Shown: positions 2,768 to 20,569 of the stretch, one piece after another
Numbering within the stretch: the first letter of the stretch is position 1
Layout of the letters: every line of letters starts with the position of its first letter
From: Candidatus Margulisiibacteriota bacterium
GTDB taxonomy: Bacteria > Margulisbacteria > Riflemargulisbacteria > GWF2-35-9
Assembly (NCBI GenBank): GCA_028715625.1
Contig: JAQURL010000024.1
Span: forward strand, 1-36,393
Direction: 5' to 3'
Length of the DNA stretch: 36,393 nucleotides
Notes under the pieces: model-generated
The model's database searches: none
Told to the model about the DNA's origin: nothing
The model's input: the letters and a program-made list of their open reading frames with translations, nothing else
Made by a program: the position numbers and the translations under genes

Positions 2768-3337
2768 TTGCCGGCGTACATATTAGTTCTGATGTTGGCA
2801 TATTTGCTGGGTTGTCTGCCAGGGCTGGATTACGCCTCAAAAAAAATAAATAAAAGCCGGAAGTTTATCCATTTTTCTTTGGATAACGGAGCCATGGTCA
2901 GCCAGTACCGTGAGTTTAAAGATTTCTGGCTATGCTTCGGATTTGAAGCTTTCAAATGGCTGATCTTTTTTTTCATTTTGAGTAAAATGGATTTTTTCCT
3001 TTTCTGTGTCTTTATTCTCGGCGTTGCGGTGCCTTTCTGGAATAAATTTAAACTGCGGAATTTGTCGGTTTACTTCCTTTTATATTTAATTTGGGCAAAT
3101 TTCGTTTCGTCTGTGGTCCTTTTACTTCTTTATGCTTTATTTTTAATTATAACTAAATATCGTTATAGATACGTGAATTTATTGATAGTTACAACGGCAA
3201 CGGTTTTATTTTGGGGAACACAAGTTGAAGCAATCTATTTACAGGAACTTCTGTTGTTTTTCTTTTTTCTGCTTGTGGATGTAATAGCAGGATATTTGAG
3301 CAACATCGGCAAGAAAGCAGAACCTGTTACAAAATAA
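2768..3337 (+). CDS. PlsY-like multi-pass membrane protein lacking catalytic motifs
   Basis: A 189-residue, very hydrophobic protein with about six membrane segments. Its pattern follows PlsY glycerol-3-phosphate acyltransferase: an AYLLGCLPGL opening, an EAFKWLIFFF helix where PlsY has its KG helix, GVAVPFWNKFKL where PlsY has GHxFPxFLxFKGGKG, and a YALFLIITKYRYRYVNLLIVTTATV helix pair near the end. The PlsY catalytic loops (GSGNIGATN and GGKG) are absent, so it is probably not an active acyltransferase. The start is a TTG 6 bases after the aspartokinase stop, without a clear Shine-Dalgarno, suggesting translational coupling. The family call rests on visual comparison only. Confidence 0.5.
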   Translation: MPAYILVLMLAYLLGCLPGLDYASKKINKSRKFIHFSLDNGAMVSQYREFKDFWLCFGFEAFKWLIFFFILSKMDFFLFCVFILGVAVPFWNKFKLRNLSVYFLLYLIWANFVSSVVLLLLYALFLIITKYRYRYVNLLIVTTATVLFWGTQVEAIYLQELLLFFFFLLVDVIAGYLSNIGKKAEPVTK

Positions 3338-3354
3338 GACAGATAGGGTATAAT
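3327..3354 (+). promoter_or_regulatory. Promoter of tRNA-Pro
   Basis: TTACAA (3327-3332) and TATAAT (3349-3354) are separated by 16 bases, placing a transcription start near 3361, about 12 bases before the tRNA. The -35 lies inside the end of the upstream membrane-protein gene. The -10 is a perfect consensus; the -35 is weak. Confidence 0.5.
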
Positions 3355-4880
3355 ATGTCTGCTATTTTGAGTCGGGATGTGGCGCAGTCCGGTAGCGCAC
3401 ACGCTTGGGGTGCGTGGGGTCGTGGGTTCGAATCCCGCCATCCCGACCAATCAATAAAACCCTCCCAACAGCCCACCGGGTCCCAGCCAATTTTGGCGTC
3501 AAAACGGACTGTTCCCGATTTCAACCTGAAGTTCGAGCCGATATTTTTGAGAAAAGTTAAATATTCCGAATAATTTTCAGTAATAAGCAGTTTATGCCCG
3601 CCACAGCTGGTTTTTAAAATATCCCGCATAGGTTCGAGCCAGGGAGAAGCCTCTTTCTGAAACATCTTGAGTTTTTCTGTAATCCCCACCTTTTGGTTGA
3701 TGAATTCTTTTTTCTTTTTGAGATAACTTTGTTTATCCAGACTTCCATCTAGATGCAAATCAAGCAGTCTCTCAATTTTTAGATCAATTTCTTTTTTCTG
3801 ATTCAGCAGAACATGAATAATGGATTGATTCTCCTTTGTTTCATTAAGTTGTTCCTTATCACAATGAATCAGCATTTTTTCAATCCAATCTTCACTAATG
3901 GAATATTGAACGATTATTTTTTTTAACTGTCCGGCTAACTCCTCCTCACGTAAATACTTTTCAGAACATGGCCCACGCTTACGGGTACAGCGATAGTAAT
4001 GATGGCCTTTTTGTTTTTCAGCGGTAATCGCCGCTCCGCAATTTTCACATGTCATAAAACCGATGAACGGGAATTCATGTCTGCGTTTTCGCTTTTTTTT
4101 ACCCCGCAGACGCATAACCGATTGAACCTGATCAAAAACAGCTTTGGAAATAATAGGCTCATGAATCCCTTCAAACCATTCACCGTTCCATTGAAAAGAA
4201 CCGTAATAAATGGGGTTCATGAGCAGATGTTGAATATTTGATGTATGATAGGCTGTTCCTGCTCTATTAAGGAATCCTTCTTTTGTTAAGATACGGTTTA
4301 TTTCAAAAAACGTATAATCACCGGTAGAATATAATTCATACGCTCTTTTTATATAAGGTGCTTTATCAGGGTCAGGTTCAATACCTTTTGTTTTATAATT
4401 ATGAATATATCCGATAGGGGCAAAGGTAGGCCATAGTCCACGCTTACATTTTATTCTATTACCTCTTCTAATATTTTCACTTAAATTATCTACATAATAT
4501 TTGCTCTGCCCGAAAGCCAGATTAAGCATAAATTTGCCCTGTGGAGTAGATTCAAACCAAAAGGTGGGGAATTTTAAGTCTTTGATAATTCCTGTATCGA
4601 GCAAATAAATAATTTTCCCGCCATCCACAGAGTTGCGAGCCAAACGATCAGGGTGCCAGGCCAGTATTCCTTCTGCTTCTCCCTGTTCGAACCGTAACAA
4701 CAGTTCATTAAAAACGGACCTTCCGGGTTCTTTGGCAGTTTTGGCCTCGCAGAGCGAGGCGACGATTTCCAATTTTTCTCTGGCGGCAAATTCTTTTAAT
4801 TCGCTCATTTGAGCTTCGATAGACATAACCTGTTTATCATCTGTATCAGTTGATTTACGGCAATAAATAATATATCTCAT
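3327..4880 (-). CDS. Large serine recombinase (island integrase), 3' end exchanged by integration
   Basis: The N-terminal resolvase domain has the catalytic serine in YCRKSTD (Ser10) and the DRLARN arginines. A recombinase domain follows (APIGY, LMNPIYYG), then a zinc ribbon (CENCG...YYRCTRKRGPC) and a coiled coil, the order of large serine integrases. Start: ATG at 4880 with AAGGAGGTG just upstream. The frame crosses the island border and reads antisense through tRNA-Pro, so residues after Trp477 (WRDSNPRPHAPQ...) are a chromosomal artefact. The native tail lies at 9319-9399 (minus). In an excised circle the product would be 503 residues. It should catalyse integration and, with a directionality factor, excision of the island. 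Confidence 0.93.
   Translation of the reverse strand: MRYIIYCRKSTDTDDKQVMSIEAQMSELKEFAAREKLEIVASLCEAKTAKEPGRSVFNELLLRFEQGEAEGILAWHPDRLARNSVDGGKIIYLLDTGIIKDLKFPTFWFESTPQGKFMLNLAFGQSKYYVDNLSENIRRGNRIKCKRGLWPTFAPIGYIHNYKTKGIEPDPDKAPYIKRAYELYSTGDYTFFEINRILTKEGFLNRAGTAYHTSNIQHLLMNPIYYGSFQWNGEWFEGIHEPIISKAVFDQVQSVMRLRGKKKRKRRHEFPFIGFMTCENCGAAITAEKQKGHHYYRCTRKRGPCSEKYLREEELAGQLKKIIVQYSISEDWIEKMLIHCDKEQLNETKENQSIIHVLLNQKKEIDLKIERLLDLHLDGSLDKQSYLKKKKEFINQKVGITEKLKMFQKEASPWLEPMRDILKTSCGGHKLLITENYSEYLTFLKNIGSNFRLKSGTVRFDAKIGWDPVGCWEGFIDWSGWRDSNPRPHAPQACALPDCATSRLKIADILYPICLIL
3373..3449 (+). tRNA. tRNA-Pro (anticodon GGG)
   Basis: The 77-base sequence folds as a standard tRNA. The acceptor stem is CGGGATG paired with CATCCCG; the D-arm is GCGC...GCGC with AGTCCGGTA in the loop. 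The anticodon stem CACGC/GCGTG encloses TTGGGGT, giving anticodon GGG, which reads CCC. The T-arm holds GGTTCGAAT, and discriminator A plus CCA are encoded. The 3' end is the integration site of the adjacent island: the sequence from CGACCA onward (3444) is shared with island repeats. Integration keeps the tRNA intact because the element supplies no new tRNA bases inside the gene. Confidence 0.97.
3444..3551. repeat. Island left attachment end (attL) and inverted-repeat copy 1
   Basis: Bases 3444-3497 (54 bp, starting with the tRNA's CGACCA) recur perfectly, inverted, at 4958-5011. Bases 3505-3520 recur at 4943-4957 with one base missing, and 3521-3551 recur perfectly, inverted, at 5117-5147. 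This stretch also encodes the last native codons of the recombinase before the crossover. CGACCA (3444-3449) is the sequence shared by attL, attR (9394-9399) and the relic junction (5006-5011), so the crossover lies within or next to it. Confidence 0.8.
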
Positions 4881-4942: not shown

Positions 4943-5083
4943 AATCGGAACAGTCCGGCCAAAATTGGCTGGGACCCGGTGGGCTGTTGGGAGGGTTTTA
5001 TTGATTGGTCGACTTTGTTCGAAAAAATTCGAACCGCCCTGAAGGGGCGCGGCTGGGACACTCCGCCGGGCAGCCGCGCCCTC
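4943..5083 (+). pseudogene. Inverted relic of a recombinase 3' end with an intact native junction
   Basis: Read on the plus strand, 4958-5083 encodes AKIGWDPVGCWEGFID followed by WSTLFEKIRTAL...GSRAL and a TGA. The first part equals the C-terminal region of the resident recombinase; the second part is the tail found at the other island end (9319-9399). It is therefore the unsplit 3' end of the same kind of gene, in opposite orientation. Upstream codons are damaged: compared with 3498-3520 it lacks seven bases and one further G, so no complete gene exists here. It records the attP-type junction (R end joined to L end). Confidence 0.8.
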
Positions 5084-5098
5084 TGAATTCGGTTAAGC

Positions 5099-5171
5099 AA
5101 AACTGCCAAAGAACCCCTCAAAAATATCGGCTCGAACTTCAGGTTGACCAAAAGCAAAATTTTGCGCATTT
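5099..5171 (+). pseudogene. Further scrambled recombinase fragments
   Basis: 5099-5116 matches, base for base, the recombinase codons for KTAKEP (4729-4746, other strand). It is directly followed by 5117-5147, which matches the codons for LKNIGSNFRL (3521-3551), a large internal deletion. 5148-5171 (with a central GCAAAATTTTGC palindrome) recurs inverted at 4904-4927 just ahead of the resident recombinase's Shine-Dalgarno. The region between the recombinase and the XRE gene is thus decayed recombinase DNA rather than a gene; no intact open frame there has coding support. Confidence 0.65.
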
Positions 5172-5253: not shown

Positions 5254-5457
5254 ATGGCAACGTCTATAGGGAACAACATAAAAAGATTGCGAACAAAAAT
5301 TAATCTAACACAAGATGAGTTAGCTAGAAAGGCTGATGTTAAATATACTACGTTAACAAAAATTGAGAGTGGTATTGTTAAGCGACCGAGTGTTCAGATA
5401 ATCGCTCAGATTGCTAAGTCTCTGAGTGTAAGTATAGAAGATATTTTGAAAGATTAG
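5254..5457 (+). CDS. Small XRE-family (Cro/CI-type) helix-turn-helix regulator
   Basis: A 67-residue protein consisting of a single HTH_3 domain: NNIKRLRTKINLTQDELARKADVKYTTLTKIESGI, with the recognition helix around TTLTKIESG (residues 31-39), and a closing SLSVSIEDILKD. It acts as a DNA-binding repressor. The inverted repeats overlapping its promoter are the obvious operators. No Shine-Dalgarno is evident and the predicted transcription start is only about 10 bases from the ATG, so the message may be nearly leaderless. Its place between the recombinase and the cargo genes suggests control of one or both. Confidence 0.9.
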   Translation: MATSIGNNIKRLRTKINLTQDELARKADVKYTTLTKIESGIVKRPSVQIIAQIAKSLSVSIEDILKD

Positions 5458-5553: not shown

Positions 5554-6972
5554 ATGGCCATATTTACACCTCGCGGGCTAAAAATCAGACTACCAGTTAA
5601 TGAAGTATTCGCTCTGATATCACGGCTATATCCAAAGGTTAATGCTTTTGAAGTCTTAAAGACAACAGAAGGGATGGAGTCAATCCCTTCGCTTATTACG
5701 TATATAATAGGTTTAATTTGTTTCTATTTAAGGTTGTCTATAATTGAAATTGGATTTTATGTTTTCTTTGCGTCAATTATAGGTTTTTTATTAACGCCTG
5801 TAATTTATAAAATTTCTGGTTTAGTTCGTTTGGGGACAGTCTATAGTTACATCTCAGGATTTGGCCTTCTACTGTTTACTATTATTGTGTCTGGTTTCAT
5901 TACAGTTGGGTGGCAAGGTTTAGCTGTTTTTTTTCTAGCGAAATTCCTTTCGGAAATTATAGAAATGGCATCAGAGGGTATACAGACAAAATTATCGAAC
6001 TCAAAAAATAATCGAATACTTACTGGGTCTGAAATAAGTTTTTTCAACGCATATAGATTACACGCTATTAGGTTGGGAGTAACGACGGATACTTATGTGT
6101 CAAAGGATGAGCTTATAAAAGAAAGTTGGTTGCCTGTTTATGAGGATTTAGTGAAAAAATGGCCAAAAATTGTAGAAAGATTTACGAATGATGAGGATTA
6201 TGAAAACAATGATGGGGAAAACATATTATCCTTGGAGATTATTAAACAACGCTGGAAAGAAGTTATAATGTATCTTAAGGTTAATAAACATATGGGAATT
6301 GCAGTAATATTAATCGAAGTAATCCCAATTAAATATCAAAAGAATGTTATTACTGTTACTTTTAAACCCAACTTAAATTATTATTATGAACTAATTTGTG
6401 ATAAGAAAAATAAAGAAATAATAGACATAACAATCAAGAAAATATTTGGAGATGAAATTACTATTGAGTTTACAAATAATAGGAATAGTAGTCATGTAGA
6501 TTATAGAGATCAGATAAAGAAGTTGGGGTGGATTGTTCATGATGGATTAGTTTCATATATTTCTGTGCATGATAAAATTTTTCATGAAGCAGCAACCTTT
6601 AAAAGTTTTATAAAAAATATTATCGGAATAAACATTAAATGGGATAAGTTGTTAGAAGAGGCAAAAAAATTAATCCCTCTATGGAATTCTATCCAATATA
6701 AGATTGAAGAGTTTAAAACATCAAATTATTCATGTTTAACAATTGATGAAAAATACTATATTGATATACTTTCACGATATGTTAAAGCTTTAAGGAAAAC
6801 CGTTGCATATTTAATTAAAAGACAACGCCTTGCGGAACGAGTACGTAAAGGCAATTTAGCTTCGGCAACATGGAGAAATTTTAGCATAAAAGAAAAGGAA
6901 TATAAGACCACGATAGAAGAATACCTTAAAATTGGTCAAGAACTTAAAGATGCTGCAGATATTATATATTGA
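5554..6972 (+). CDS. Membrane protein with a DnaX (gamma/tau) C-terminal-like domain
   Basis: A 472-residue protein of unknown function. Residues 45-135 hold about four membrane segments (for example ITYIIGLICFYL, FASIIGFLLTPVIY, GFGLLLFTIIVSGFI). Residues 226-308 resemble the C-terminal domain of bacterial DNA polymerase III gamma/tau: an IKQRWKEVIMYLK helix, VITVTFKPNL strand, a KNKEIIDITIKKIFG helix and EITIEF strand, in the DnaX order. The rest (to 472) is helical and charged and I do not recognise it. Start: ATG with AAAGGA upstream. The DNA is strikingly AT-rich. It precedes the SIR2-like gene by 74 bases, and the pair probably works together. The DnaX resemblance is a reading by eye. 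Confidence 0.7.
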   Translation: MAIFTPRGLKIRLPVNEVFALISRLYPKVNAFEVLKTTEGMESIPSLITYIIGLICFYLRLSIIEIGFYVFFASIIGFLLTPVIYKISGLVRLGTVYSYISGFGLLLFTIIVSGFITVGWQGLAVFFLAKFLSEIIEMASEGIQTKLSNSKNNRILTGSEISFFNAYRLHAIRLGVTTDTYVSKDELIKESWLPVYEDLVKKWPKIVERFTNDEDYENNDGENILSLEIIKQRWKEVIMYLKVNKHMGIAVILIEVIPIKYQKNVITVTFKPNLNYYYELICDKKNKEIIDITIKKIFGDEITIEFTNNRNSSHVDYRDQIKKLGWIVHDGLVSYISVHDKIFHEAATFKSFIKNIIGINIKWDKLLEEAKKLIPLWNSIQYKIEEFKTSNYSCLTIDEKYYIDILSRYVKALRKTVAYLIKRQRLAERVRKGNLASATWRNFSIKEKEYKTTIEEYLKIGQELKDAADIIY

Positions 6973-7046: not shown

Positions 7047-8210
7047 ATGACACGAACAAAATTTAATCAAAATAAAAGCGAGCAATGGACACCTTTTGAG
7101 GCATATCAGTCGGTGCCTGTTATTTCAAGAAAATCAACGCTATACGTATTTGGTGCTGGTTCATCTAAAGACTGGGGGTCTCCTTTGGGAAATGAATTTT
7201 TTTCAAAGGCTAAAAGTATCAGTGACGGGGATGGGAAAAATACAACGTCACGACATGTAAAAGAAGCATATACCAATGTTATCAATATTTTGGCGACTTC
7301 AGGTATTGATTATAATAATGTAAATTTTGAGGAGTTATTAACTACATGTGACATAATTCTTGCCGAGAAACCGGATGACAAAAACATAGGAACACTTCGG
7401 TTTAATCTTATTAAAATGATTTTTGGTGTCTTAACTAAGTGTTTTGGAGAAGCTACCCTAGGAACTGGGGATTCTAAATTTATAGAAGAGAATCCAGTAA
7501 ATTTTAGAAATTTTTATCAGCTTTTTATAAAAAATATTATTGAAACAGAAAACCCGATATTTATTAACCTTAATTATGATATTTTGTTGGACAGTGCTGT
7601 TTTAGAAGCATACGAACCACCAATATATGAAAGAATAAGTACCAAAAGATATATTAGATATCTTTTGCCGCAAATGAAGAAACCTGGTTATTTTGATATT
7701 AATAAAACTACTATCAACCCTTCCGGACATAAAATGTATAAACCTCACGGAACAGTTAACCTGCTCTTATGCAACAAGTGTAATAAATTTATATATAGTA
7801 AAGATTCATTCATTACCATAATTGATAATAATAGAGATAGCGCTGTATGTCCTTTTTGTAACGAAAAACTTTCTTATGATAACTTGTCAATTATTCCACC
7901 CAATTATAATAAAAATATTCAAAAACAGAATTATGTGAAGGAGTTAATTGAAGATATAAGTTTAGCTGACGAAATAAACATAATTGGTTATTCTTTCCCT
8001 CCATATGACCAGGATTTTAGAAATATTTTTCTCAAAGGATTGTGCAGGAACAAAAAATTATGTTCTATTAATATTATTGATAAAGACGAGGATGAAGCAA
8101 AAGTTTTCTTAAAATATAATTTTTTACAACTATCAGGACAAAAAATAAATTTAAAATCTATTAATGGATTCCTTTGCTTTCTACAGCAGGAGGTAAAAAA
8201 TGGAAAATAA
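7047..8210 (+). CDS. SIR2-like (sirtuin-fold) NAD-binding protein
   Basis: A 387-residue protein. Sirtuin-type landmarks: the NAD-binding GAGSS at residues 36-40 with GSPLGNEF after it, NLNYDILLD near 174-182, the catalytic-type histidine in KPHG (His234), two zinc-binding pairs (CNKC at 242-245, CPFC at 268-271) and IIGYSFPPYDQDF near 312. SIR2-like proteins in bacterial defence islands usually hydrolyse NAD+ on infection and abort phage growth; that activity is known for the family and only inferred here. No clear Shine-Dalgarno precedes the ATG. Its last 11 bases overlap the RhuM gene, so those two are translationally coupled. Confidence 0.88.
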   Translation: MTRTKFNQNKSEQWTPFEAYQSVPVISRKSTLYVFGAGSSKDWGSPLGNEFFSKAKSISDGDGKNTTSRHVKEAYTNVINILATSGIDYNNVNFEELLTTCDIILAEKPDDKNIGTLRFNLIKMIFGVLTKCFGEATLGTGDSKFIEENPVNFRNFYQLFIKNIIETENPIFINLNYDILLDSAVLEAYEPPIYERISTKRYIRYLLPQMKKPGYFDINKTTINPSGHKMYKPHGTVNLLLCNKCNKFIYSKDSFITIIDNNRDSAVCPFCNEKLSYDNLSIIPPNYNKNIQKQNYVKELIEDISLADEINIIGYSFPPYDQDFRNIFLKGLCRNKKLCSINIIDKDEDEAKVFLKYNFLQLSGQKINLKSINGFLCFLQQEVKNGK

Positions 8211-9216
8211 AATAATCCTCTATCAAAACGAACAAGGAAAAGTTTCTGTGAATGTTACTTATCGTAACGAGAGTTTTTGGCTTACTCAAAAAGCTATGGC
8301 TGATTTGTTTGGTGTTGAAGTGCCAGCCATTAACAAACATCTGGCGAATATTTATGAAAGTGGTGAACTTAACCAGGACACAACTATTTCCATTTTGGAA
8401 ACAGTTCAAAAAGAAGGCAACAGAGCTGTAAAGCGGCAAATAGAATTCTACAACCTTGATGCTATTATTGCGGTGGGTTACCGTGTCAATTCTAAGCAAG
8501 CGACTCAATTCCGGATTTGGGCAACCAATACACTGAAAGAGTATATTATCAAAGGATTTTTACTCAATGATGAAATGTTGCAAAATGGCAGGCCCTTCGG
8601 GCAGGATTATTTTGATGAACTGCTTGAACGGATTAGAGAAATCCGGGCCAGTGAACGCAGAACATATCAGAAGTTAGCCGATATATTTGAGCAATGCAGT
8701 GCTGATTACTCACCACAAGCTGAAGAAACAAAATTATTTTATGCTATGGTGCAAAATAAACTTCATTTTGCGATAACTGGACAAACAGCAGCTGAAATTA
8801 TACATAATAGAGCAGACCATACAAAAACAAATATGGGATTGACCACCTGGAAAAAATCACCTCATGGGAAAATATTAAAAAGTGATATTAACATAGCTAA
8901 AAATTATTTAACTGAAAAAGAAATTGGCGACTTGAATCTTTTGGTTAACGCTTATCTTGATTTGGCTGAATTTCAAGCTAGACGTAAAACAACCATGAAC
9001 ATGAAGGACTGGCTTGAGCGCACTAATAAATTTTTAGAATCTAATAGCTTGGATGTTTTACCTGATGCTGGCAAAGTATCGCATGAACAAGCACTTGAAA
9101 AAGCTGAGATTGAATATAATTCTTTTCGTATTGATCAGGACAAAAAATATATTTCCGAATTCGACAAACATATCAAAAAATTAAAAAAATCAAAGGATGA
9201 ACCAATAGACTTATAA
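8200..9216 (+). CDS. RhuM-family protein
   Basis: A 338-residue protein of the RhuM (virulence_RhuM) family: opening ENKIILYQNEQGKVSVNV, the winged-helix-like WLTQKAMADLFGVEVPAINKHLANI, then QIEFYNLDAIIAVGYRVNS and QFRIWATNTLKEYIIKGF, followed by FYAMVQNKLHFAITGQTAAEII. The C-terminal third is charged and helical. The biochemical role of RhuM is not established; these genes are common next to restriction and other defence genes and on mobile elements. Start: ATG at 8200, Shine-Dalgarno AGGAGGT at 8187-8193, inside the end of the SIR2 gene. It is the last cargo gene before the island's right end. Confidence 0.92.
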   Translation: MENKIILYQNEQGKVSVNVTYRNESFWLTQKAMADLFGVEVPAINKHLANIYESGELNQDTTISILETVQKEGNRAVKRQIEFYNLDAIIAVGYRVNSKQATQFRIWATNTLKEYIIKGFLLNDEMLQNGRPFGQDYFDELLERIREIRASERRTYQKLADIFEQCSADYSPQAEETKLFYAMVQNKLHFAITGQTAAEIIHNRADHTKTNMGLTTWKKSPHGKILKSDINIAKNYLTEKEIGDLNLLVNAYLDLAEFQARRKTTMNMKDWLERTNKFLESNSLDVLPDAGKVSHEQALEKAEIEYNSFRIDQDKKYISEFDKHIKKLKKSKDEPIDL

Positions 9217-9312: not shown

Positions 9313-9399
9313 CCGAATTCAGAGGGCGCGGCTGCCCGGCGGAGTGTCCCAGCCGCGCCCCTTCAGGGCGGTTCGAATTTTTTCGAACAAAGTCGACCA
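9313..9399 (-). repeat. Island right attachment end (attR) carrying the recombinase tail codons
   Basis: 87 bp perfectly repeated, inverted, at 5006-5092. On the minus strand, 9399 down to 9319 encodes 26 residues (WSTLFEK...GSRAL) and a TGA, the native end of the recombinase gene that integration cut off. Joining 9399 to 3450, as in an excised circle, keeps the frame exactly. The segment contains an 11-bp stem (9324-9334 with 9350-9360) and a GTTCGAA/TTCGAAC hairpin near 9371-9388. It ends with CGACCA, and chromosomal sequence resumes at 9400. It also shares GGTTCGAAT with the tRNA T-arm. Confidence 0.85.
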
Positions 9400-9425
9400 T
9401 TCGATGAATGCCTAACTGAACGTCC

Positions 9426-17200: not shown

Positions 17201-20200
17201 TTAATTCATAATTTTAACGGAATCGTTCCCAAAGGCCAGGTTTAATTCTTCCAGATGGCGTAAATTAAACCAGTACTTTTTATTCAGTAATATTTGATAA
17301 CCGTCCATTTCCAGATAAACAGGGGTATTGCCCGTATATTGCTGTAGAAGTGTTTTAACACCGTCAATCTGTTCCTGCTCGATATTGATAAATATTTTTA
17401 CCGGCATTACGCGTTGCACAAACTGATCGTCAACATTATCGATAATTATTTGCATCTGGTCATTACGGGAGTCTGCTATGCCTGAAATAAGGTAAGGTCT
17501 GTCTTCATACAAGCTGTCGGCCAGTTGTTCATATTTGTCAGGAAAAATTACAAAGGGAAGAGTTCCGGTAAGGTCTTCCACTGTACCCGTGAGCATTGTT
17601 TGTTTGTTTTTTGTAATTCTTTTTTTAAAGCTGGTAAGCAGGCCTATCATTTTGATTTTTGAGTTTTCTTCTGTTATATTCTGGATTTCTTTGAAATGAT
17701 TGCTTTTTATATGTTCAATATAATCCTGTAAGGGATGACCGGATACATACACTCCAAGCATTTCTTTCTCCAGCTTGAGCAGTTCTCTCTGTGAAAATTC
17801 TTCATTCTTCAAATTTTTATCGCGTTCTATAGTGTGAATTTCTTCTGTGGAAAACATATTCAGCTGGCCGTTTTCATTTACTTTCTGGATTTTTAAGGCT
17901 TCATTGACTGTGTCATCCAGAATGTCCAGCAGCCCTTTTCTTTTGCCAAGAACATCAAAAGCCCCGGCTTTGATAAGGCTTTCAATTACCCGTTTATTCA
18001 CAAGCCGCAGGTCTACCCTGATACAAAAATCTATCAGGGAATGAAAGATACCGTCTTTTACACGGGTATTTACAATCGACTCGATAGCGTTGCTGCCTAC
18101 ATTTTTTATGGCTTGTAATCCGAAAAGAATTTTATTGTTGATAATAAAAAAATCATTATAACTTTCGTTGATGTCCGGAGGCAGAACATCAATTCCCAGG
18201 TTTTTTGCTTCGGCAATGTATAGTGATACCTTGTCCGTATCATTAATGTTGCTGGAAATAAGTGCGGCCATAAATTCTATGGGATAATGAGTTTTTAAAT
18301 AAGCTGTTTGATAAGTTATGAATGCATAAGCAGCACTGTGCGATTTATTAAATCCGTATTCGGCAAATTTAGCCATCATCTCAAATATGGAGTTGGCTTT
18401 ATTTTCAGCAATTCCCTGAGCAACGGCACCATTGATAAATTTCTGCTGCATTTTATCCATTTCTTCTTTTTTCTTTTTACCCATGGCTTTTCTCAGAGTG
18501 TCAGCTTCACTCATGGAAAAACCGCCTACAGCAGAAGCAATTTGCATGACCTGTTCCTGATAAAGTATTGTCCCGTAGGTATCTTTTAGGATAGTTTCCA
18601 GTTCTTTTATGGGGTAGGTAACTTTTTGCCTCCCATGTTTGCGGTTTACAAAATCTTTGTCCATGCCGCTGCCCAGAGGTCCTGGTCTGTATAGTGCCAA
18701 TAGGGCAATGATGTCTTCAAAGACAGTGGGAAGTAACGATTTGAGAAGAATTTGCATACCCTGACTTTCCAGCTGAAATATTCCCATAGAATTTCCACTG
18801 CTTAGTGTTTTATAGGTATCAGGGTCATCCATATGAATATTTTCAATATCAATTTCTTTTCCTTGGCTTTGTTTGATAAGAGCAATAGTTTTGGCAATCA
18901 TTGTAAGGTTGCGTAATCCCAGGAAATCCATTTTTAAAAGGCCGACACTTTCCAAATCATCCTTGGGAAACATGGTAACCAGCTGTTCGTCTTTTTCTAT
19001 CATGGGCACGGTTTCCATCAAGGGGTCCTTGGAAATGACAACTCCTGCCGCGTGAATGCCTGTATGCCGCGCAATTCCTTCCAGCTTACAGGCTACATCA
19101 AGCAGTTCCTTAATATTGGTTTTGGCATTATAAATTTGTTTCAGCTCTGAAGACTGCTCCAGCGCCTCTTTAATGGTTAGTCCGAAAGGTACGAGTTTGG
19201 CCACCTTGTCCACTTCGCTTAAAGGCACTTCCAATACGCGACCTACGTCTCGTATGGCCATACGTGCCGCCATCCGGCCGAAAGTAATAATTTGAGCTAC
19301 ATGGTCCGTACCATATTTTTGTTTTGTATAATCAATAACACGCTGGCGATTTTCTATACAGAAATCAATATCAATATCAGGCAGACTGATACGGTCGGGA
19401 TTCAAAAATCTTTCAAAGAGCAAGTTGAACTTGAGGGGATTAATATTGGTGATTCCCAACGAATAAGCAATGATACTGCCTGCTGCGCTTCCACGCCCAG
19501 GGCCTACGCTGATACCGCTGTTTTTGGCAAAATGAATGAGGTCCGAAACAATCAAAAAATAAGAGGCAAACCCCATTTTTTTTATTACACTGAGCTCGAA
19601 ATAAAACCGTTCCTTAATCGCGTCCGTTAATGTTTTGTATCTGTTTTGCAATCCTTCCCAGGCGAGTTTTTCCAGATAACTGTCAGGTGTTTCCTTATCC
19701 GGTACCGTAAATAGAGGCAGGAAATGTTCGCCCAGAGTTAATTCCAGGTTACACTTGTCTGCAATTTCTCCTGTTACTGCCAGAGCTTCAGGCAAATCTT
19801 TGAACTCAGCATACATTTCTTCCTGACTTTTAAAATAAAATTCATTGGTTTTAAAATGAAGACGTTCGTTATCCTTCAGAGTTTTTCCGGTTTGCAGGGC
19901 CAATAAAATATCCTGGATAATGGCATCTTCTTTATTTAAATAGTGAGCATCATTGGTAATAACCAGAGGAGTTTTTGTAGCCTTGCTCAGGTCCGCCAGT
20001 TTTTTATTAACGAGCTTTTGCTCATCCAAGCCGTGGTCCTGCATTTCCAGATAAAAATCTTCTCCGAATAAATCTTTAAAGTATTGGATTTCTTTTTGCG
20101 CCTGCTCCAGATTGGAAACCAGCAGACTTCTGACTACAGGGCCGCTGATGCAACCGCTCAGGCAAACCAGACCTTCATGATATTTGCTCAGGGTTTCGTA

Positions 20201-20569
20201 ATCAATCCTCGGTTTATAAAAGAAACCCTCAAGATGGGCAATGGAAACGAGCTTTAGTAAATTTTTATAACCAGTGAGATTTTTTACCAGTAAAGTTAAG
20301 TGAGCCGGTGATTTATCCATTTTGGCGTCTTTATCCAGCCTCGTTCTCGGAGCAAGATAAACTTCACAACCGACAATCGGTTTGATTCCCATAGCTTTTG
20401 CTTTGCTGTAAAACTCTACTGCGCCATACATAACTCCATGGTCTGTCAGAGCAACAGCGGACATGCCCAGATCTTTAGCCTTGTTCAGCAGATCGGTAAT
20501 CATAATGGCACCGTCCAGCAGGCTGTATTCGGAATGCACATGCAAATGGATGAAGGTTTTTTTAGTCAT
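17201..20569 (-). CDS. dnaE: DNA polymerase III alpha subunit DnaE
   Basis: 1122 residues, within the normal DnaE1 range. PHP domain at the start (LHVHSEYSLLDGA, LTDHGVMYGAVEF), the palm with GPGRGSAAGSIIAYSLGIT and the catalytic LPDIDIDFC near residue 395, then YQEQVMQIA, GYGFNKSHSAAYAF-type fingers region, helix-hairpin-helix (LDVLPPDINES...VGSNAIESIV), an OB fold near 990 (IKMIGLLTSFKKRITKNKQTM) and a C-terminal domain. It is the chromosomal replicase; proofreading must come from elsewhere. A TATAAT lies at 20585-20590 (minus), 15 bases before the ATG, with no Shine-Dalgarno. No intein or gap is seen. Confidence 0.97.
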   Translation of the reverse strand: MTKKTFIHLHVHSEYSLLDGAIMITDLLNKAKDLGMSAVALTDHGVMYGAVEFYSKAKAMGIKPIVGCEVYLAPRTRLDKDAKMDKSPAHLTLLVKNLTGYKNLLKLVSIAHLEGFFYKPRIDYETLSKYHEGLVCLSGCISGPVVRSLLVSNLEQAQKEIQYFKDLFGEDFYLEMQDHGLDEQKLVNKKLADLSKATKTPLVITNDAHYLNKEDAIIQDILLALQTGKTLKDNERLHFKTNEFYFKSQEEMYAEFKDLPEALAVTGEIADKCNLELTLGEHFLPLFTVPDKETPDSYLEKLAWEGLQNRYKTLTDAIKERFYFELSVIKKMGFASYFLIVSDLIHFAKNSGISVGPGRGSAAGSIIAYSLGITNINPLKFNLLFERFLNPDRISLPDIDIDFCIENRQRVIDYTKQKYGTDHVAQIITFGRMAARMAIRDVGRVLEVPLSEVDKVAKLVPFGLTIKEALEQSSELKQIYNAKTNIKELLDVACKLEGIARHTGIHAAGVVISKDPLMETVPMIEKDEQLVTMFPKDDLESVGLLKMDFLGLRNLTMIAKTIALIKQSQGKEIDIENIHMDDPDTYKTLSSGNSMGIFQLESQGMQILLKSLLPTVFEDIIALLALYRPGPLGSGMDKDFVNRKHGRQKVTYPIKELETILKDTYGTILYQEQVMQIASAVGGFSMSEADTLRKAMGKKKKEEMDKMQQKFINGAVAQGIAENKANSIFEMMAKFAEYGFNKSHSAAYAFITYQTAYLKTHYPIEFMAALISSNINDTDKVSLYIAEAKNLGIDVLPPDINESYNDFFIINNKILFGLQAIKNVGSNAIESIVNTRVKDGIFHSLIDFCIRVDLRLVNKRVIESLIKAGAFDVLGKRKGLLDILDDTVNEALKIQKVNENGQLNMFSTEEIHTIERDKNLKNEEFSQRELLKLEKEMLGVYVSGHPLQDYIEHIKSNHFKEIQNITEENSKIKMIGLLTSFKKRITKNKQTMLTGTVEDLTGTLPFVIFPDKYEQLADSLYEDRPYLISGIADSRNDQMQIIIDNVDDQFVQRVMPVKIFINIEQEQIDGVKTLLQQYTGNTPVYLEMDGYQILLNKKYWFNLRHLEELNLAFGNDSVKIMN

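What the first reader, a model, noticed from the sequence alone, without database searches (positions are those of the whole stretch)
6229..6477. DnaX (gamma/tau) C-terminal-like domain in a membrane protein
Residues 226-308 follow the helix-strand-helix-strand pattern of the DnaX C-terminal domain (RWKEVIMYLK, VITVTFKP, NKEIIDITIKKIFG, EITIEF), but there is no AAA+ clamp-loader part and the protein begins with four membrane helices. In gamma/tau the C-terminal region contacts the replicative polymerase, so a mobile-element copy might bind host or phage replication proteins as a sensor or decoy. The role is inference.
Basis: inference. Interest (0 to 1): 0.66.

Follow-up and report, generated by a model that had tools for sequence, protein, structure and literature searches.

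The report
Membrane protein carrying clamp-loader tail domain
A gene on a small mobile element, next to a probable NAD-destroying defence gene, joins a little-known membrane protein to a real copy of the tail domain of the bacterial replication clamp loader, so it may tether or sense the replication machinery at the membrane; the homology is shown, the function is inferred.

Summary
Residues 224-307 of the 472-aa ORF (5554-6972, +) are a true homologue of the C-terminal domain of DnaX (gamma/tau). A profile built from DnaX proteins alone scores 59 bits (best of 1,000 shuffles: 7.8). The host's own DnaX C-terminus is 31-33% identical. A confident model (pLDDT about 95) has the DnaA-domain-I/tau/DciA fold. 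There is no AAA+ part.

The protein is a three-part mosaic. Residues 1-213 equal a complete stand-alone membrane protein (212-234 aa) in six genomes, mostly of different phyla. Residues 321-464 match a separate 154-aa protein in one Bacteroidota genome. No second fused copy was found in about 1,570 genomes.

The DnaX domain keeps its core but has lost the near-invariant F-H-K motif (now Y-Y-Y) and the C-terminal tail of DnaX, so a plain polymerase decoy is less likely. The gene lies 74 bases upstream of a SIR2-type gene with intact catalytic residues, then RhuM, beside a serine recombinase. Best reading: a membrane-anchored sensor or adaptor that uses a remodelled DnaX domain to bind a replication protein, probably coupled to the SIR2 effector. 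The coupling is inference.

The parts
5554..6192 (+). N-terminal module (residues 1-213), predicted membrane helices, start motif TPRGLKIRL...RLYPK; equals complete stand-alone proteins of other bacteria
   Evidence: 38-64% identity over the module to stand-alone proteins in L092, L142, L094, L137, L128, L168; no significant Pfam, NCBIfam or PHROG family; AlphaFold2 pTM 0.73, no PDB match
6223..6474 (+). DnaX_C-type (tau C-terminal) domain, residues 224-307; F-H-K motif replaced by Y276-Y278
6499..6972 (+). C-terminal module (residues 316-472), four long helices in the model; relative is a separate 154-aa protein in a Bacteroidota genome
   Evidence: E 1.6e-9, 27% identity over 321-464; ORF in L166/L167; model
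7047..8210 (+). SIR2-domain protein, 387 aa; catalytic-type N176, D178, H234 present; proposed effector partner
   Evidence: PF13289 25.3 bits against cut-off 24.5; residues invariant in five proteins; 74-base gap
8200..9216 (+). RhuM family protein, overlaps the SIR2 gene by 11 bases
   Evidence: PF13310 E 7e-109; PADLOC PDC-S05 E 1.7e-148
5254..5457 (+). Cro/C1-type helix-turn-helix regulator
   Evidence: PF01381 E 7e-14
3327..4880 (-). Large serine recombinase
   Evidence: Resolvase, Recombinase and Zn-ribbon domains; its 3' end reads antisense through tRNA-Pro
3373..3449 (+). tRNA-Pro(GGG), probable integration site
   Evidence: ARAGORN; integration site inferred from the position
4997..5092 (.). 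96-base repeat, inverted copy at 9313-9408, 97% identical, flanking the HTH / DnaX_C / SIR2 / RhuM block
9313..9408 (.). Partner copy of the 96-base inverted repeat

Best explanation
The gene encodes a membrane-anchored adaptor or sensor. N-terminal helices hold it in the membrane. Its cytoplasmic part is a DnaX/tau-type C-terminal domain followed by a four-helix module. The DnaX domain (KH-like fold shared with DnaA domain I, tau domain V and DciA) most likely binds a replication protein, either host DnaB or Pol III alpha or a phage counterpart, with a surface remodelled relative to host DnaX. The SIR2 gene 74 bases downstream, with intact NADase-type residues, most likely supplies the effector: when the bait is engaged or disturbed, SIR2 would be activated and deplete NAD+. 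Shown: domain homology, predicted fold, modular architecture, gene order, SIR2 residues. Inferred: membrane topology, binding partner, coupling to SIR2, defence role.
For: Homology and fold of the domain. Fusion of three separately occurring parts. Same-strand SIR2 neighbour with invariant N/D/H, then RhuM overlapping by 11 bases with a PADLOC candidate-defence match. No terminator-like site in the 74-base gap. Serine recombinase and inverted repeats. DnaA N-terminal domain, tau C-terminal domain and the DciA DANL domain are recognised as structurally related (PMC9825169).
Against: Only one instance of the fusion is known. The SIR2 relatives seen on plasmids do not lie beside a DnaX_C protein, so the pairing is not shown to be conserved. 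The stand-alone N-modules have no shared neighbour and no obvious defence context. The interaction hallmarks of DnaX, F-H-K and the C-terminal tail, are lost.
Confidence: 0.35

Rival explanations
1. Replisome decoy or inhibitor: the membrane-bound DnaX domain competes with tau for Pol III alpha (or DnaB) and slows host or phage replication, without needing SIR2.
For: True DnaX domain; nearest tree rows are DnaX of the host's own class, 31-33% identity to the own DnaX; a membrane anchor would sequester its target.
Against: F-H-K motif replaced and C-terminal tail absent; in E. coli that tail is the alpha-binding site (title cited in PMC4703070). Low overall identity.
Confidence: 0.2
2. Generic interaction domain: the DnaX_C fold serves self-association or binding to the element's own proteins, with no link to replication.
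For: Closest solved fold is DnaA domain I bound to another protein (4tps), a general protein-binding fold; the surface motif of DnaX is gone while the core is kept.
Against: In every other ORF examined the domain sits in a DnaX-type protein, so a replication partner is the simpler expectation.
Confidence: 0.25
3. The membrane gene and the SIR2 gene are independent cargo of the element and merely adjacent.
For: SIR2 relatives on plasmids stand alone; stand-alone N-modules have no SIR2 neighbour.
Against: Same strand, 74-base gap, no terminator-like site in the gap; similar low G+C of C-module and SIR2, 29 and 30%.
Confidence: 0.4
4. Recent, unselected read-through fusion of three cargo genes with no function of its own.
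For: Single instance; stepwise G+C of 34, 23 and 29% along the ORF; N-module relatives stop at the junction.
Against: Open frame of 472 codons; the DnaX core is well kept and gives a confident model.
Confidence: 0.12
5. Not a DnaX domain: chance resemblance, or a DnaA domain I / DciA-type domain.
For: Foldseek ranks DnaA domain I first, and the alignment profile finds DnaA chains before DnaX in the PDB.
Against: DnaX-only profile 59 bits against 7.8 for the best of 1,000 shuffles; Pfam lists DnaX_C and not DnaA_N; NCBIfam lists only DnaX models.
Confidence: 0.03

Closest known systems
DnaX (DNA polymerase III gamma/tau), C-terminal domain PF20964
   Same: Sequence and predicted fold of the domain: W234, L253, E255, P258, F270, N286, K287, G299 kept
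   Different: No AAA+ clamp-loader part; F-H-K motif and C-terminal tail lost; membrane module in front, helical module behind
DnaA domain I / DciA DANL domain
   Same: Overall KH-like fold (4tps probability 1.00, TM 0.79 by target length)
   Different: Sequence groups with DnaX_C; no DnaA_N match reported
SIR2-based defence systems (for example DSR2)
   Same: SIR2 gene with intact catalytic-type residues beside the gene
   Different: Here the SIR2 protein is a separate 387-aa protein with a zinc ribbon next to a membrane/DnaX_C protein; from my own knowledge no described system has that partner
Uncharacterised stand-alone membrane proteins (L092, L142, L094, L137, L128, L168)
   Same: 38-64% identity over residues 1-213
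   Different: They end where the DnaX domain begins here

Membership tests
DnaX gamma/tau (whole protein) | AAA+ clamp-loader ATPase with Walker A | tested here: not met
   No AAA+ family in Pfam or NCBIfam scans and no Walker A motif in the ORF, while nearly all other matched ORFs have one
DnaX C-terminal domain (PF20964) | Profile match | tested here: met
   59.0 bits with a DnaX-only profile; Pfam E 2.1e-5, but 24.9 bits is just under the curated cut-off of 26.2
DnaX C-terminal domain (PF20964) | Fold | tested here: met
   Model pLDDT 93-98; nearest folds DnaA domain I and the E. coli tau chain 5fku_E
DnaX C-terminal domain (PF20964) | Near-invariant F-H-K motif | tested here: not met
   F 74/76, H 68/76, K 48/76 in DnaX; Y-Y-Y here
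DnaX C-terminal domain (PF20964) | Short C-terminal tail motif of the FGG-[IV] type after the domain | tested here: not met
   Strict pattern in 47 of 76 DnaX; absent here, where a 160-residue helical region follows
DnaX C-terminal domain (PF20964) | Binding to Pol III alpha | not testable with these tools
   Needs binding assays or complex prediction
DnaA domain I (DnaA_N) | Sequence profile match | tested here: not met
   Not among Pfam hits reported at E up to 10; the DnaX-derived profile reaches DnaA chains only at E 0.01-0.04
SIR2_2 domain protein (neighbour gene) | SIR2 profile and catalytic N/H | tested here: met
   25.3 bits against cut-off 24.5; N176, D178, H234 invariant in five proteins
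SIR2-based anti-phage system | Phage resistance through NAD+ depletion with a dedicated sensor | not testable with these tools
   Needs an experiment

The most novel reading that the evidence does not exclude
A two-gene defence system in which a membrane-tethered copy of the clamp-loader tau domain acts as bait for phage or host replication proteins and triggers a SIR2 NADase: replisome status read out by a domain taken from the replisome itself.
Probability: 0.15. Interest if true: 0.78.

Novelty: new variant of a known kind. Interest (0 to 1): 0.5.

Why it matters
In the genomes searched, and apart from this gene, the DnaX C-terminal domain was seen only inside DnaX-type ORFs. A copy cut loose from the clamp loader, anchored in the membrane and placed beside a SIR2 gene is a concrete, testable case of a replisome domain reused on a mobile element, possibly for sensing replication. 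The work also defines two uncharacterised modules, a stand-alone membrane protein found in several phyla and a four-helix protein, that have no entry in the family libraries searched.

Tried and rejected
Chance match: rejected. Capture from the host's own DnaX: own-class DnaX are the nearest rows in both trees, in a group with support 97/92 when few Bacillota are sampled and without starred support once they are added; Bacillota DnaX also score as well (39.5 and 37.5 bits against 37.5 and 35.4), so the donor is unresolved. Homologues of the fusion: none in plasmids or phages, IMG/VR or about 1,570 genomes. The pattern scan of 84,980 genomes found five N-modules, none fused. The CBASS-phospholipase hits to the C-module at E 1 were dismissed as noise. 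A full-length mixed alignment misplaced the DnaX rows onto W203 of the N-module, so the two halves were modelled separately. The N-module fold search gave no usable match.

Full report
Observation. The ORF 5554-6972 (+) encodes 472 aa, and residues 226-308 are exactly 6229-6477. Pfam names one credible family in it, DnaX_C, over residues 224-307 (E 2.8e-4; isolated segment E 2.1e-5, 24.9 bits against a cut-off of 26.2). NCBIfam's DnaX models agree (E 9e-7 and 3e-4). The genome's own DnaX C-terminus matches at E 3.8e-9 with 33% identity. To remove circularity I built a profile from 47 DnaX C-terminal domains without the window: it scores the window protein at 59.0 bits over 224-307, while the best of 1,000 shuffled versions scores 7.8. 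No AAA+ domain is present.

Fold. With 38 DnaX rows as alignment, AlphaFold2 models the domain at block pLDDT 93-98, in the order helices, strand, strand, helices, strand. Foldseek against the PDB gives B. subtilis DnaA domain I in the SirA complex first (4tps, probability 1.00, TM 0.79 normalised by the target), then the E. coli replicative polymerase complex chain E (5fku, probability 0.94), with a DciA domain (7ykm), the DnaA N-terminal domain (2e0g) and the tau domain (2aya) further down. E-values are weak (0.006 and above); the query also carried the helical module. These proteins form a recognised structural group: the DciA DANL domain is described as structurally homologous to the DnaA N-terminal domain and the tau C-terminal domain (PMC9825169). 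By sequence the window domain belongs with DnaX_C; DnaA_N was not reported.

Architecture. A degenerate DNA pattern from the N-terminus, tried first on the window and then scanned in a looser form over 84,980 genomes, returned 97 stretches, of which five encode relatives of residues 1-213 at 38-64% identity: L092, L142 (Paceibacterota), L094 (Dadabacteria), L137 (Bacteroidota), L128 (Planctomycetales). A sixth came from a genome of the phylum sampled around Pseudalkalibacillus, that is Bacillota (L168). In all six the protein stops where the DnaX domain starts here. The module has no significant Pfam, NCBIfam or PHROG family, is modelled as long, largely hydrophobic helices plus a short tail, and has no PDB neighbour. 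Residues 321-464 match a stand-alone 154-aa protein in a genome of the phylum sampled around L137 (Bacteroidota) at E 1.6e-9; the model gives four long helices. The protein is therefore a mosaic of three parts. G+C changes along it: 34% (N-module), 23% (DnaX_C), 29% (C-module), against 37-40% for lpxB and dnaE in the window. No other fused protein was found in about 1,570 genomes, plasmids and phages or IMG/VR. These searches have limited reach: the large collections were scanned with short patterns, and the genomes were samples of a few phyla. Apart from the window, all DnaX_C matches examined lie in DnaX-type ORFs; a few are contig-edge or shorter ORFs without a visible Walker A motif.

What changed in the domain. 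Against 76 DnaX domains the window keeps W234 (76/76), L253, E255, P258, F270, N286, K287 and G299, but replaces F-H-K (74/76, 68/76, 48/76) by Y276-Y277-Y278, and the FGG-[IV] type C-terminal tail by the helical module. In E. coli the unstructured tau C-terminus is the site that binds alpha (title of Jergic 2007, listed in PMC4703070), while the globular part makes a second contact with the polymerase fingers; the same paper notes that the E. coli and Taq tau C-terminal domains bind the polymerase in different ways. A plain mimic of tau for Pol III alpha is thus not what the sequence best suggests; a remodelled binding surface is.

Origin. In trees of the domain the nearest rows are DnaX of the window's own class. 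With Bacillota added there is no starred support, and a Bacillota DnaX scores as high as the own-class ones (39.5 bits). The donor lineage is unresolved.

Setting. Upstream on the same strand lies a Cro/C1-type regulator (5254-5457). Downstream after 74 bases comes a SIR2-domain gene (7047-8210), then RhuM (8200-9216), a PADLOC candidate-defence family. The SIR2 protein has GAGSS, N176-Y-D178, H234-G235 and cysteine pairs, largely shared with four plasmid-borne relatives. Those relatives are not beside a DnaX_C gene, so a conserved pairing is not shown. A large serine recombinase (3327-4880, -) runs into tRNA-Pro (3373-3449), and a 96-base inverted repeat flanks the block.

Mechanism. Best-supported reading: a membrane-anchored adaptor or sensor whose DnaX-type domain binds a replication protein and which probably works with the SIR2 effector. 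Shown: homology, predicted fold, mosaic structure, neighbours, SIR2 residues. Inferred: topology, partner, coupling, defence. Rivals are a decoy for the replisome, a generic interaction domain, independent cargo genes, and an unselected fusion; some of these are compatible with one another, so their probabilities are not exclusive.

Noticed in passing
window 17201-20569 (-): A dnaE-type Pol III alpha gene, the natural partner of tau, lies about 8 kb from the element carrying the DnaX-domain protein; probably coincidence.
   Followed up: no
window 4997-5092 and 9313-9408: A 96-base inverted repeat (97% identical) with a GC-rich hairpin and a tRNA-T-arm-like GGTTCGAA...CGACCA stretch flanks the HTH/DnaX_C/SIR2/RhuM block.
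   Followed up: partly
window 3444-3551 and 4943-5147: Pieces of the region at and after the tRNA-Pro 3' end (54 and 31 bases, 100% identical) recur inverted just upstream of the recombinase start, so the recombinase gene sits between inverted repeats.
   Followed up: partly
L092:2576-3220, L142:3031-3669, L094:2829-3533, L137:1355-1999, L128:3752-4396, L168:1498-2136: An uncharacterised 212-234-aa membrane protein family (start motif TPRGLKIRL, RLYPK) scattered over several phyla, without a Pfam entry and without conserved neighbours.
   Followed up: partly
L167:5375-9487: The stand-alone relative of the C-module lies in a run of small ORFs, one with an HNH-like cysteine pattern (read by eye), that resembles a variable cargo island.
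   Followed up: no
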